Shown here: in pieces, positions 1,674-44,666 of the stretch | Layout of the letters: every line of letters begins with the position of its first letter | Numbering within the stretch: position 1 is the stretch's first letter | Assembly: GCA_944322815.1 (NCBI GenBank) | Contig: CALUQB010000007.1 | Span: 18,172-82,171 of the forward strand | Length of the DNA stretch: 64,000 nucleotides | Source: an uncultured Bacteroidales bacterium | Lineage (GTDB): Bacteria > Bacteroidota > Bacteroidia > Bacteroidales > UBA932 | Direction of reading: 5' to 3' | The notes under the pieces: generated by a model | Told to the model about the DNA's origin: nothing | Databases searched by the model: none | What the model saw: the letters and a program-made list of their open reading frames with translations, nothing else | Translations under genes and position numbers: made by a program

Positions 1674-3509
1674 ATGGAACACAAAGTAATTGACGTCGAA
1701 GATGTAGTCATCCGCTTCGCAGGTGATTCCGGTGACGGCATGCAGCTGACCGGCTCACTCTTTGCGAACATGTCTGCCATCTACGGAAACGAACTCTCCA
1801 CTTTCCCTGACTTTCCTGCAGAGATCAGGGCTCCCCACGGGACAGTTTCCGGCGTTTCCGGTTTTCAGGTACATTTCGGTTCAGGCCATGTCACTACTCC
1901 TGGAGATTTTTGCGACATGCTGGTGGCCATGAACCCGGCAGCGTTGAAATCTAATGCCAGGTGGCTTAAACGCACGGCACTTGTGCTTATAGACGAAGAC
2001 ACTTTCGATGAGGAAGGTATCAGAAAAGCCGGCTTCAGTACGATGGACCCTGTGACGGAACTCAAGATAGAAGACCGGACCATCATCGTCTCGCCTATCA
2101 CTACGCTTACCGAAGAAAGTCTGAAAGACAGCGGACTTGACCAGAAGACTGTCCACAAATGCAAGAACATGTTCACACTTGGCATGGCCTCCTATATTTA
2201 CAACCGGCCTGTCGAGCACATATATGATTATCTGGAAAGAAAGTTCGGAAAAAAACATCCGGAACTCATAGCCCCTAACAGGAAAGTCCTGAACGACGGC
2301 TACAACTATGCTTCGAACATACAGGCTATCGCCAATACCTACACTGTCGTTCCGGCCAATATGAAAAAAGGGCTGTACCGCAATATTACGGGAAACCAGG
2401 CGGTCGCCTGGGGCTTCATCGCCGCCTCCGAGAAATCGGGCAGACCTCTTTTCTGCGGTTCCTATCCCATCACTCCGGCTACCGGCATTCTGGAAGAACT
2501 CGCCGTCCATAAGTATCTGGGCGTGAAAACCGTACAGGCGGAAGACGAGATCGCCGGAGTCTGCACTGCCATAGGCGCGGCCTATGCAGGAGATCTGGCA
2601 GTGACCACCACTTCCGGTCCCGGCCTTTCCCTCAAGTCGGAAGCACTCGGACTGGCGGTGATGACGGAGCTGCCGCTTGTCGTGGTGGATGTGCAGCGTG
2701 CCGGTCCTTCGACAGGCATTCCGACCAAGACCGAACAGACGGATCTGGCTCAGGTCCTGTACGGCAGAAACGGCGAATGCCCTATGGTCGTGATCGCCGC
2801 ACATTCTCCTGCAAACTGTTTCGATGCGGCTTTCATGTCTGCAAAGATAGCTTTGGAGCACATGATGCCTGTAGCCCTTCTTTCCGAGGGCTTCCTCGGG
2901 AACGGTTCGGAGCCGTGGCTCATACCGTCCATGAAAGATTACCCTGAAATCAGGCCGCCGTATGCCACGGAGGCGGATATCCCGTTCAAGCCGTTTGTCC
3001 GTGACGAAAAGACTTATGTCCGCAAGTGGGCTTTCCCGGGTCAGAAGGGGTTCGAGCACAGGGTAGGCGGACTGGAAAAGTCCCCTCAGGGAGTACTTTC
3101 TTCAGATCCTGCAAACCATGAACTCATGGTCAGAAACAGGGCGGAAAAAGTAGCCAGGATAGCTGATATCATACCTCCGCTTGAGGTCGACGGTCCGTCA
3201 CAGGGCGAACTTCTCGTCGTCGGCTGGGGCGGAACATACGGCCACATACTTTCAGCCGTACATGAGGTGCGTAAATCAGGCGGGACAGTCAGCCAGGTGC
3301 ATTTCGACTATATCAACCCTCTTCCGAAGAATACCGGCGATGTCCTTTCGGGCTTCCGCAAGATTCTGGTCTGCGAGCTGAACCGCGGCCAGTTTGCCGA
3401 CTGGCTCAGGGCCAGGTATCCGGGGCATGACTATATCCAGTGCAACAAGGTCCAGGGACAGCCGTTCCTGGTCCAGGAGATAGTGGATGCCATAGAAAAG
3501 GCTTTGTAG
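1674..3509 (+). CDS. korA: 2-oxoglutarate:ferredoxin oxidoreductase, fused gamma-alpha subunit
   Basis: A 611-residue subunit of a 2-oxoacid:ferredoxin oxidoreductase, which with KorB converts 2-oxoglutarate and CoA to succinyl-CoA and CO2 while reducing ferredoxin (reversible). Residues 1-200 are the gamma domain, with FAGDSGDGMQ near residue 15. The rest is the alpha (pyrimidine-binding) subunit, with GNQAVAWGF and CGSYPITPATGI. The fusion is usual in Bacteroidetes KorA. The ATG at 1674 is chosen because family homology begins there; the frame is open to a GTG at 1611, but that lies against the -7 element. korB follows after 19 bases and gdhA after that, which favours 2-oxoglutarate over pyruvate as substrate. 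The substrate remains an inference from context. Confidence 0.87.
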   Translation: MEHKVIDVEDVVIRFAGDSGDGMQLTGSLFANMSAIYGNELSTFPDFPAEIRAPHGTVSGVSGFQVHFGSGHVTTPGDFCDMLVAMNPAALKSNARWLKRTALVLIDEDTFDEEGIRKAGFSTMDPVTELKIEDRTIIVSPITTLTEESLKDSGLDQKTVHKCKNMFTLGMASYIYNRPVEHIYDYLERKFGKKHPELIAPNRKVLNDGYNYASNIQAIANTYTVVPANMKKGLYRNITGNQAVAWGFIAASEKSGRPLFCGSYPITPATGILEELAVHKYLGVKTVQAEDEIAGVCTAIGAAYAGDLAVTTTSGPGLSLKSEALGLAVMTELPLVVVDVQRAGPSTGIPTKTEQTDLAQVLYGRNGECPMVVIAAHSPANCFDAAFMSAKIALEHMMPVALLSEGFLGNGSEPWLIPSMKDYPEIRPPYATEADIPFKPFVRDEKTYVRKWAFPGQKGFEHRVGGLEKSPQGVLSSDPANHELMVRNRAEKVARIADIIPPLEVDGPSQGELLVVGWGGTYGHILSAVHEVRKSGGTVSQVHFDYINPLPKNTGDVLSGFRKILVCELNRGQFADWLRARYPGHDYIQCNKVQGQPFLVQEIVDAIEKAL

Positions 3510-41366: not shown

Positions 41367-43325
41367 ATGATTGACGTTACATTTCCTGATGGCAGCGTGA
41401 AAACTTTCGATGAGGGGATCACTGCATATCAAATCGCACAGGGCATCAGTCCCAAACTTGCGGCGGAGGTACTCGCTGCGGCTGTAAAATTTGAGGATGA
41501 TGCTGCAGGAAACACATCCATATATGACCTTGACCGTCCTTTGGACAGGAATTGTTCAGTCCGACTTCTCAAATGGGATGATGATGAAGGGAAACATGTA
41601 TTCTGGCATTCTTCCTCCCATCTGATGGCTGCCGCTCTCGAAAGCTTGTATCCGGGAGTGAAATTCGGTATCGGTCCGGCTATCGAGAACGGTTTCTATT
41701 ACGATGTCGATCTGGGAGATGTCCAGATTACTGAAGCCGACCTGAAAGCGGTGGAAGACAAGATGCTGGAACTGGCCCGTACCAAAGAACATTTCGTCCG
41801 CAGGGAAGTGCCCAAGGCCGAAGCTCTGGAAACGTTCCGGGAAAAGGGTGACGAATATAAGTGCGAACTTATAGGCGAACTGGAAGACGGTACCATATCT
41901 TTCTATACCAACGGAGATTTTACCGACCTGTGCCGCGGTCCTCATCTTAGAGATACTTCCGTGATCAAGGCGGTCAAGCTTACATCCATCGCCGGCGCAT
42001 ACTGGAGAGGTGACGAAAACCGCAAGATGCTTACGAGAATCTACGGTATCACGTTCCCTAAGAAATCCATGCTGGATGACTATCTCGCCATGCTCGAGGA
42101 GGCGAAGAAGAGAGATCACAGGAAGATCGGAAAGGAAATGGAGCTCTTTACTTTTTCTTCCCGTGTAGGACAAGGCCTGCCGATGTGGCTGCCGAAGGGT
42201 GCGGATCTCCGCGAAAGACTTGAGAACTTCCTGAAGAAGGTGCAGAAGTCATACGGTTATCTGCCTGTCATCACGCCTCATATAGGAAACAAGGATCTGT
42301 ATGTGACATCAGGCCACTATGCCAAGTACGGAAAGGATTCTTTCCAGCCTATCCATACTCCGCAGGAAGGGGAGGAATTCCTGCTCAAGCCGATGAACTG
42401 CCCTCATCATTGCGAAATATACAGGTCCAAGCCGAGATCTTACAAGGATCTGCCTCTGAGATTTGCCGAGTTCGGTACGGTATACCGCTACGAGCAGAGC
42501 GGCGAGCTCCACGGACTTACGAGAGTGCGTGGCTTCACACAGGATGACGCCCATCTCTTCTGCCGTCCAGACCAGCTGAAAGAGGAGTTCTGTAAGGTCA
42601 TCGACATCATTCTCTATGTGTTCAAGACCCTGCATTTCGATGAGTATATAGCTCAGGTTTCATTGCGTGACCTGAATCATAAGGAGAAGTATATAGGCAC
42701 TGACGAAAACTGGGAAAAGGCCGAGCAGGCTATCATAGATGCCGCAGCCGAAAAGGGTCTCAAGACCATAGTCGTTCCCGGCGAGGCTGCTTTCTACGGA
42801 CCGAAACTCGATTTCATGGTGAAAGACGCTCTGGGGAGAAAGTGGCAGCTTGGAACCATTCAGGTGGACTATAATCTTCCGGAGAGGTTCGAGCTCGAAT
42901 ATACCGGCAGTGACGGAAAGAAGCACAGGCCGGTGATGATTCACAGGGCTCCGTTCGGTTCGCTTGAAAGATTCGTGGCCGTACTCCTCGAACATACCGC
43001 CGGAAAACTTCCTCTGTGGCTGACCCCTGACCAGGTCAATATCCTGCCAGTCAGTGAAAAATTCTCGGATTATGCAAAAAAAGTTTGCGATTTGATGAAT
43101 AATTCCGATATTCGCGCCTCAATTGACGACAGGAACGAAACCATAGGAAAGAGAATAAGGGAAAGCGAGTTGCAGAGGATTCCGTTCCTGGTCATCGTAG
43201 GAGAGAAGGAGATGGAGAACGGCACTGTTTCGGTCAGGAGGCAGGGCGGAAAGGATGAAGGCTCGATGAAAGTCGGGGATTTCATCGCACTTGTAAGGAA
43301 AGAGGTCGAAGACATGTTGTCTTAG
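41367..43325 (+). CDS. thrS: Threonyl-tRNA synthetase
   Basis: A 652-residue class II synthetase charging tRNA-Thr. Domains in order: TGS (1-65, [14 protein letters not shown]), the editing N2 domain (70-230, with [11 protein letters not shown] and the CRGPHLRDT metal site), the catalytic core (245-540, with [28 protein letters not shown] and [16 protein letters not shown]) and the anticodon-binding domain (540-645). The ATG at 41367 gives the normal TGS N-terminus; an in-frame start at 41337 would coincide with the transcription start. infC follows after 49 bases, the classic thrS-infC-rpmI-rplT order. Confidence 0.97.
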
Positions 43326-43360
43326 ACGGCTCTATATTGTGTTGATTATTAACTTAATTT

Positions 43361-43377
43361 AGGAGGATTTTTTTATC
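43361..43377 (+). promoter_or_regulatory. Strong Shine-Dalgarno and AUC start of infC
   Basis: AGGAGG at 43361-43366, 8 bases, then ATC at 43375. The frame is closed by TAG at 43360 and holds no ATG, GTG or TTG until TTG at 43498, so ATC is the only reasonable full-length start. Confidence 0.8.
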
Positions 43378-44001
43378 GCAGCACCATTTAAACCATCTGC
43401 GCCGAAATTTTCAGGACCCAGACCGAACAATGCAGGTCCTCAGGGTGCAGGTCGTCCTTCAGGAAACGGTCAGAGACCGAGGAAGGATGAAGACGGATTG
43501 AGAATTAATGAAGAGATCACCGCTCCCAGGGTGCGACTTGTCGGTGACAATGTGCCCGAGCAGGGGATAATTTCTACATCTGAGGCCTTGAAGAAGGCGG
43601 AAGAGCTTGGACTTGACCTGGTTGAAATCACTGCTAAAGTAGATCCTCCTGTGTGTAAGATCATAGACTACCAGAAGTATCTGTACCAGCAGAAGAAGAG
43701 AGCCAAGGAAATGAAGGCGAATTCTACGAAGGTAGTCATAAAGGAAATCAGGTTCGGGCCGAATACCGATGAACATGATTTCCAGTTCAAACTGAAACAT
43801 GCGATAGGCTTCCTTCAGGAAGGCTCGAAAGTCAAGGCTTCGGTCTTTTTCAAGGGTAGGGCCATTCTTTACGTGGATCAGGGAGAAAAACTTCTGCTCA
43901 GGTTCGCCCTGGAACTGGAAGAGTATGGACGTGCGGAACAGATGCCTAAGCTGGAAGGCAAGAGGATGATGATGATGATCGCACCGATAAAGAAAAAATA
44001 G
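43375..44001 (+). CDS. infC: Translation initiation factor IF-3 (AUC start codon)
   Basis: A 208-residue factor that keeps 30S subunits free and checks start-codon pairing. The N-domain begins around [20 protein letters not shown] and the C-domain around [19 protein letters not shown]. Ahead of the family core lies a 40-residue Pro/Gly-rich tail ([20 protein letters not shown] and on), as in other Bacteroidetes. The start codon is ATC with a strong SD; IF-3 rejects such codons, so it can limit its own synthesis, as known for the E. coli AUU start. Starting at TTG 43498 would lose only the tail but has no SD. Confidence 0.92.
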
Positions 44002-44048: not shown

Positions 44049-44243
44049 ATGTCAAAGACAAAGACCAACTCCGGTGCAAAAAAGCGTTTCAAGCTTACCG
44101 GAACGGGAAAACTGAAGAGAAAACACGCTTACAAGAGCCACATTCTCACAAAGAAGACCAAGAAGCAGAAGAGAAATTTGACTCATTTCGCTGTCGTTAC
44201 CAGCGCTGACGAAAAGAGAGTCAAAGCTTTATTGGGAATGTAA
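44049..44243 (+). CDS. rpmI: Ribosomal protein bL35
   Basis: A 64-residue basic large-subunit protein. [20 protein letters not shown], then [14 protein letters not shown] is the L35 signature. It follows infC by 47 bases. The gap holds a small TCCGGA-CAG-TCCGGA stem immediately after the infC stop, which may be part of a regulatory or processing site. It belongs to the infC-rpmI-rplT unit, in which L20 represses expression in many bacteria. Confidence 0.97.
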
Positions 44244-44321: not shown

Positions 44322-44666
44322 ATGCCAAGATCGGTTAATTCAGTTGCCTCAAGGGCACGCCGCAAGAAAATCCTTAAGAAGACCCGCGGTTATTTCCTTT
44401 CCAGAAAGAATGTCTGGACGGTAGCAAAGAACACCTATGAGAAAGGACTCACTTATGCTTACCGTGACCGTAAGACCAAGAAACGTAATTTCCGTGCACT
44501 CTGGATCCAGAGAATCAATGCCGCTGCACGTCAGTATGGCATGACTTACTCCCAGTTCATGGGCAAGCTCGGAAAACAGAACATCGGTCTGAACCGCAAA
44601 GTGCTTGCAGACCTTGCTATGAATAATCCTCAAGCGTTTGAGGCTATTGTCAATTCTGTAAAATAG
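44322..44666 (+). CDS. rplT: Ribosomal protein bL20
   Basis: A 114-residue rRNA-binding assembly protein of the large subunit. [20 protein letters not shown] at the N-terminus, [20 protein letters not shown] in the globular part and [17 protein letters not shown] at the end are all L20 hallmarks. It follows rpmI by 78 bases, longer than usual; the spacer has no SD. In other bacteria L20 represses its own operon. lepB begins 8 bases after the stop. Confidence 0.97.

What the first reader, a model, noticed from the sequence alone, without database searches (positions are those of the whole stretch)
43361..43377. infC starts with AUC behind a strong Shine-Dalgarno
The only plausible full-length start of IF-3 is ATC at 43375; an in-frame stop at 43360 closes the frame and no ATG/GTG/TTG occurs for 41 codons. 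A perfect AGGAGG precedes it by 8 bases. E. coli infC uses AUU for self-limitation. The same logic appears here in a phylum that mostly does not use SD, suggesting that SD strength compensates for the poor codon.
Basis: partly seen in the sequence, partly recalled or inferred. Interest (0 to 1): 0.52.

Follow-up and report, generated by a model that had tools for sequence, protein, structure and literature searches.

The report
AUC-started IF3 gene with Shine-Dalgarno
In this Bacteroidales genome the gene for translation initiation factor 3 begins with the poor start codon AUC behind a strong ribosome-binding site, and comparison with relatives shows that the two features go together, which matters because ribosomes of this phylum are thought to ignore such sites.

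Summary
In detail: AGGAGG 43361-43366, eight bases, ATC 43375-43377, in-frame TAG 43360-43362, next canonical codon TTG 43498. ATC is very probably the start: the 41 codons before TTG evolve as protein and ATA/ATC-GCN sits at the same place in most relatives read. Noncanonical infC starts are known (E. coli, B. subtilis and Listeria AUU, Streptomyces AUC, S. aureus AUA), so the kind is not new. My searches found no mention of it for Bacteroidota. Called without looking at the SD, AUH-GCN starts in the window's order carry an SD in 87 of 94 genomes and AUG starts in 0 of 29, with 17 of 140 unassigned. On a concatenated tree with ten changes of codon, SD and codon change together in 9-10 of 10 independent pairs, never oppositely. 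It is not phylum-wide: AUA/AUC without SD stands in 16 of 17 AUH cases from other orders of the class and in 4 of 6 Alistipes records. IF3 self-limitation is inferred, not tested. The SD is six bases, not the extended type of rpsU in the same genome, so control through bS21-free ribosomes is only a possibility.

The parts
41367..43325 (+). thrS, threonyl-tRNA synthetase, upstream gene
   Evidence: Pfam tRNA-synt_2b, HGTP_anticodon, tRNA_SAD, TGS; ATG 41367 taken by me as start inside the ORF listed from TTG 41337
43360..43362 (+). in-frame TAG that closes the infC frame and overlaps the SD
   Evidence: an in-frame stop lies within five codons upstream in 60 of 89 AUH-GCN+SD loci of the order, own included
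43361..43366 (+). Shine-Dalgarno AGGAGG
   Evidence: duplex with the standard 16S tail -10.2 kcal/mol; conserved
43367..43374 (+). 8-base spacer
   Evidence: spacing 8 in 82 of 124 SD calls among the 210 loci
43375..43377 (+). ATC start codon of infC
   Evidence: ATC in 14 of the 17 same-genus relatives read, the other 3 having ATG; GCN follows in 128 of 153 AUH calls, the rule giving preference to GCN
43378..43500 (+). translated N-terminal extension of IF3
   Evidence: codon changes mostly synonymous (10 synonymous and 2 nonsynonymous against L232; pooled pS 0.55, pN 0.18)
43375..44001 (+). infC, translation initiation factor IF-3, 208 aa
   Evidence: Pfam IF3_N and IF3_C; TIGR00168 197.6 bits
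43498..43500 (+). first canonical codon (TTG), rival or additional start, directly before RINEEI
   Evidence: has a weak SD-like match (5 bases, spacing 8); rejected as the only start
44049..44243 (+). rpmI, ribosomal protein L35
   Evidence: Pfam
44322..44666 (+). rplT, ribosomal protein L20
   Evidence: Pfam

Best explanation
infC is translated from AUC 43375. The 30S subunit is held at the site by pairing of AGGAGG with the CCUCC of the 16S tail, and this makes up for the mismatch between AUC and the initiator tRNA anticodon. IF3 disfavours such mismatched starts, so IF3 most likely limits its own synthesis: much IF3, little initiation at AUC; little IF3, more. Shown here: the site, its conservation, that the extension evolves as coding sequence, and that in this order the SD is found with non-AUG and not with AUG starts. 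Inferred: that the SD works on these ribosomes at this codon, and the feedback.
For: In-frame stop overlapping the SD and no canonical codon for 41 codons. In 107 of 209 assessable infC frames no ATG/GTG/TTG exists between the upstream stop and the conserved RINEEI, so a noncanonical start is forced there. Extension under purifying selection. SD-blind calls in the order: AUH-GCN with SD 87 of 94, AUG with SD 0 of 29, 17 of 140 unassigned; duplex energy median -10.2 against -3.6 kcal/mol, p 9e-14, ignoring relatedness. Tree of IF3+L35+L20+ThrRS (129 of 140 rows with a call): 7 independent pairs on well-supported branches, SD going the same way in 5.8 on average, not differing in 1.2, never the other way, median p 0.031 (range 0.016-0.125); 10 pairs on all branches, 9-10 the same way, 0 opposite, p 0.002-0.004. 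Named records: 44 of 50 against 0 of 21, 9 of 80 unassigned. Published: IF3 autoregulates through a noncanonical infC start, ATT in E. coli and ATC in Streptomyces (passages of PMC5472188).
Against: In Prevotella bryantii, reporters did not respond to adding or removing an SD (passages of PMC3155529; their start codons are not stated in what I saw), and Bacteroidia ribosomes hide the anti-SD (PMC9976891). AUA/AUC starts without SD in 16 of 17 AUH cases from other orders of the class, in 4 of 6 Alistipes records and in 7 of 94 AUH cases of the order show that an SD is not indispensable. TTG 43498 has a 5-base SD-like match at spacing 8. No proteomics, ribosome profiling or IF3 titration was available.
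Confidence: 0.8

Rival explanations
1. Translation starts only at TTG 43498 and gives a short IF3 (MRINEE...).
For: It is the first canonical codon in frame, and 167 residues still cover nearly all of both IF3 domains. It has a 5-base SD-like match at spacing 8 in the own gene, and an SD-like match of 5 or more in 4 of 17 same-genus relatives. TTG stands at this place in 8 of 17 same-genus and 3 of 35 family relatives.
Against: The 41 codons before it evolve as coding sequence. The residue is Leu in all 17 same-genus relatives read but is written CTC, CTG or TTA in 9 of them, so TTG is not kept as a start. No canonical codon at all precedes RINEEI in 24 of 35 family and 5 of 17 genus members. 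The conserved SD would lie 131 bases away. As an additional internal start it is not excluded.
Confidence: 0.03
2. The SD+AUC site answers to ribosomes with an exposed anti-SD (short of bS21), as rpsU does in Flavobacterium, so IF3 supply is tied to bS21 as well as to IF3.
For: rpsU and rpsR of the same genome also bear SDs (AAAGGAGGTGATT and TAAGGAGG), and bS21 has Tyr at position 54 (my count on the sequence); in F. johnsoniae ribosomes lacking bS21 favour rpsU mRNA (PMC9976891).
Against: That regulation needs an extended SD; the infC SD is six bases, -10.2 against -20.4 kcal/mol for rpsU.
Confidence: 0.15
3. The AUC codon and SD serve only to set a fixed low output, perhaps coupled to thrS translation, without IF3 feedback.
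For: thrS ends 49 bases upstream, and in some AUG-type relatives the ATG directly follows or overlaps TAA/TAG (L243, L254, L257).
Against: A non-AUG codon is kept in infC in several phyla, which a merely weak start would not need; not excluded by my data.
Confidence: 0.12
4. Assembly error in a homopolymer (TTTTTTT) hides an ATG.
For: Seven T in a draft genome of 64 contigs.
Against: The same arrangement with different spacers stands in dozens of other assemblies.
Confidence: 0.01

Closest known systems
infC of E. coli, AUU start, IF3 autoregulation
   Same: IF3 gene, AUH start codon, infC-rpmI-rplT gene cluster (E. coli cluster: PMC10931766, passages; thrS before it in E. coli is recalled)
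   Different: Codon AUC here; host phylum hardly uses SDs; feedback not shown here
infC of Streptomyces (ATC) and Staphylococcus aureus (AUA with extended SD)
   Same: Same codon (Streptomyces) or an AUH codon with a strong SD (S. aureus)
   Different: S. aureus relies on extended SDs; here the SD is short, the genome is SD-poor, and the SD is absent in relatives with AUG
rpsU (and rpsR) of Bacteroidota with SD, bS21 autoregulation
   Same: Rare SD-bearing translation gene in an SD-poor genome; all three found in this genome
   Different: AUG start, and in rpsU an extended SD; infC has AUC and a six-base SD

Membership tests
infC with noncanonical, IF3-discriminated start (E. coli type) | gene encodes IF3 | tested here: met
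   Pfam IF3_N and IF3_C, TIGR00168 over cut-off
infC with noncanonical, IF3-discriminated start (E. coli type) | start codon is AUH, not AUG/GUG/UUG | tested here: met
   frame closed upstream, coding evolution of the extension, conserved AUH-GCN; by sequence only, not by proteomics
infC with noncanonical, IF3-discriminated start (E. coli type) | SD in front of the codon | tested here: met
   AGGAGG, spacing 8; 87 of 94 AUH-GCN loci in the order
infC with noncanonical, IF3-discriminated start (E. coli type) | translation falls as IF3 rises | not testable with these tools
   needs reporters and IF3 titration
bS21-gated SD genes of Bacteroidota (rpsU type) | extended SD | tested here: not met
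   six bases, -10.2 kcal/mol, against AAAGGAGGTGATT, -20.4, in own rpsU
bS21-gated SD genes of Bacteroidota (rpsU type) | more translation by ribosomes lacking bS21 | not testable with these tools
   needs bS21 depletion

The most novel reading that the evidence does not exclude
Bacteroidales ribosomes do read SDs in vivo where the start codon is poor, and infC senses two things at once: free IF3 through the AUH codon, and 30S subunits with an exposed anti-SD (short of bS21/bS18) through the SD, so IF3 supply follows the state of 30S assembly.
Probability: 0.15. Interest if true: 0.75.

Novelty: new variant of a known kind. Interest (0 to 1): 0.5.

Why it matters
Bacteroidota ribosomes keep the anti-SD but are held not to use it. 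A gene that has its SD with AUA/AUC and not with AUG, through about ten changes of codon on the tree (direction not resolved), says that selection sees SD pairing in these cells. That gives a clean natural test case for when a hidden anti-SD can be used. By inference, gene finders restricted to ATG/GTG/TTG would misplace the IF3 start in many genomes of this phylum. The SD-less AUA starts in other orders of the class are a second open question: how they are recognised at all.

Tried and rejected
A TTG 43498 start as the only start, a homopolymer error and chance were considered and rejected. A first association test that only asked for GGAGG anywhere in the 5' region was weak (order sample: 48 of 57 without ATG against 13 of 30 with ATG, p 1.5e-4; other orders of the class p 0.40; in the genus and family samples all, with or without ATG, hold GGAGG), I think because purine-rich coding sequence gives GGAGG by chance; I then used start-based calls. 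An IF3-only tree was too poorly resolved (one independent pair on well-supported branches; 7 of 9 the same way and 0 opposite on all branches), so I built the concatenated tree (a quick search with the mixture model switched off). The own genome holds no 16S rRNA match; 2 of 21 genomes do, and one of them, L313 of the same order, shows ...ACCTCCTTTCT. The duplex energies use the standard tail from recall. Rfam found nothing in the window. RNA folding around the site gave nothing that I use. In one search, 3 of the 14 chosen relatives fell out of my ORF filter (L014, L054, L196). My SD routine reports the first of equal matches, so L107 was counted as without SD although its second GGAGG stands at spacing 8; one search uses a routine without that fault.

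Full report
What is there. Bases 43360-43377 read TAG GAG GAT TTT TTT ATC in the infC frame. AGGAGG is 43361-43366, the spacer is eight bases, ATC is 43375-43377. The stop TAG overlaps the SD, so nothing upstream can be read into the protein. The first canonical codon is TTG 43498, 41 codons on, directly before the conserved RINEEI. The product has IF3_N and IF3_C, and the neighbours are thrS, rpmI and rplT.

Is ATC the start? Against the relatives, the 41 codons between ATC and TTG evolve as protein. With L232, whose core is 99% identical, there are 10 synonymous and 2 nonsynonymous changes. Pooled over 12 sequences pS is 0.55 and pN 0.18 (11 of 14 chosen relatives passed my ORF filter, which asks for AT[C/A]GC and so says nothing on the first codon itself). 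Inside the own infC, isoleucine is written ATC 5, ATA 5, ATT 3. Yet the first codon is ATC in 14 of the 17 same-genus relatives read, the other three having ATG. By contrast the Leu at the place of TTG 43498 is TTG in 8 and CTC, CTG or TTA in 9 of those 17. Against this, TTG 43498 has a 5-base SD-like match at spacing 8, and 4 of the 17 have a match of 5 or more there too, so an additional internal start is not excluded. In 107 of 209 assessable infC frames there is no ATG, GTG or TTG between the upstream stop and RINEEI (L129, cut by a contig end, is left out), so a noncanonical start is forced there.

Sampling. infC was found in 188 of 199 genomes of the family, 115 of 119 of the order and 156 of 158 of the phylum. 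I read 210 loci: the window's own, 17 of the genus, 35 of the family, 87 of the order (drawn nearly one per family), 35 of other orders of the class and 35 of other classes. Ninety are loci that the searches returned as best-scoring; 120 were picked by me from the printed rows. In addition I read the 80 named records that one search kept out of 431, which may overlap the unnamed ones. The titles there place the window among Bacteroidales records, some titled Candidatus Cryptobacteroides, Merdivivens and Cacconaster.

SD and start codon. I called the start without looking at the SD: the first in-frame ATG, or ATA/ATC/ATT followed by GCN, at least five codons before RINEEI. An SD means at least five contiguous matches to TAAGGAGGTGATT at spacing 5-9. 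In the order (window's genome, genus and family included) AUH starts carry an SD in 87 of 94 and ATG starts in 0 of 29; 17 of 140 are unassigned. The AUH codons are 61 ATA and 33 ATC, no ATT. In the nearly one-per-family order sample alone it is 42 of 47 against 0 of 25, with 15 of 87 unassigned. Median duplex energy with the standard 16S tail is -10.2 against -3.6 kcal/mol. In the named records it is 44 of 50 against 0 of 21, with 9 of 80 unassigned; 7 of those 9 show ATA or ATC with an SD but another second codon. These p-values ignore kinship. Therefore I built a tree from IF3, L35, L20 and the ThrRS tail (140 rows, 129 with a call). It needs 10 changes between AUG and AUH; such counts do not tell gain from loss. 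Of 7 independent pairs on well-supported branches the SD goes the same way in 5.8 on average and never the other way (median p 0.031, range 0.016-0.125); on all branches it is 9-10 of 10 (p 0.002-0.004). Within the window's genus three relatives (L197-L199) have ATG CCT without SD at the ATG, and all three show AGGAGA further up, which looks like a decayed SD.

Limits of the pattern. In other orders of the class AUA/AUC-GCA starts are found in 17 of 35, and 16 of these 17 have no SD (the rule said 17 of 17, L107 being a miscount); 13 of the 17 have no canonical codon at all before RINEEI. A further 8 of the 35 have ATG, and 10 are unassigned by the blind rule, 5 of these with TTG-GCN. The one record titled Flavobacteriales, L305, has ATC without SD. 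Of the six records titled Alistipes, four have ATC without SD and two were unassigned. In other classes AUH starts carry an SD in 8 of 19 by the rule, ATG starts in 0 of 4, with 11 unassigned, and the AUH duplex median is -6.5. So an SD is the usual partner of AUH in the window's order but not a condition for AUH everywhere.

Genome background. The first ATG of 292 long ORFs has an SD of 5 or more in 23 (mock 6) and of 6 or more in 8 (mock 1). In this SD-poor genome rpsU has AAAGGAGGTGATT, rpsR has TAAGGAGG and infC has AGGAGG. bS21 has Tyr at position 54 by my count, a residue that the F. johnsoniae paper names.

Mechanism. IF3 disfavours mismatched start codons, and in E. coli this makes it limit its own AUU start (PMC5472188, passages; PMC13009471, passages). 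The most likely working here is the same, with the SD anchoring the 30S subunit. The feedback is inferred. The new element is that SD pairing must count in Bacteroidales at this codon, although Prevotella reporters ignored SDs (PMC3155529, passages; their start codons are not given there), SDs are said to be unused in Bacteroidetes for de novo initiation and reinitiation (PMC6728339, passages), and Bacteroidia ribosomes hide the anti-SD (PMC9976891, passages and the first part of the Discussion). These fit if pairing matters only when the codon is poor. Control through bS21 is possible but less likely, since the rpsU type needs an extended SD.

Known or new. Noncanonical infC starts are in print: ATT in E. 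coli and ATC in Streptomyces, ATT in B. subtilis (PMC6097659, passages) and in Listeria (PMC13068326, passage), AUA with an extended SD in S. aureus. For Bacteroidota I found no mention in the listings, and the word infC does not occur in the main texts of PMC9976891, PMC8710568, PMC6847099, PMC10783764 and PMC3155529. Two papers that hold both infC and Bacteroidetes do not connect them in the passages; two others of that list (PMC4245954, PMC8779481) I did not open. Jha et al. 2021, a likely place, was not held. I therefore file it as a new variant of a known kind.

Noticed in passing
L211, about 1473-1496: Own rpsU has an extended SD (AAAAGGAGGTGATTAGACATG); bS21 has Tyr54 by my count.
   Followed up: partly
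L312, about 1430-1455: Own rpsR has an 8-base SD (TAAGGAGGAGCAATCATG).
   Followed up: partly
L095-L123 (other orders of the class): infC begins with AUA (AUC in L104) without SD in most AUH cases; the three bases before the codon are GCC or GTC in 13 of 17.
   Followed up: partly
L287, L289, L291, L300: Alistipes infC begins with ATC-GCA without an SD.
   Followed up: no
L015: A family member has CTG-GCA with SD at the place of the AUH codon.
   Followed up: no
L313, about 3010-3035: 16S tail reads GGAATACCTCCTTTCT where GGATCACCTCCTTTCT is usual (recalled).
   Followed up: no
L079, L084, L087, L088, L183: The genome searches report one TAA inside the infC match for these genomes; my reading of L079, L084, L087 and L088 gave an open frame of 186 codons, and the cause is not clear.
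   Followed up: no
L091, L105, L109, L114, L120: TTG-GCA/GCT stands at the start of infC in 5 of 35 class-level relatives, where others have AUA-GCA.
   Followed up: no
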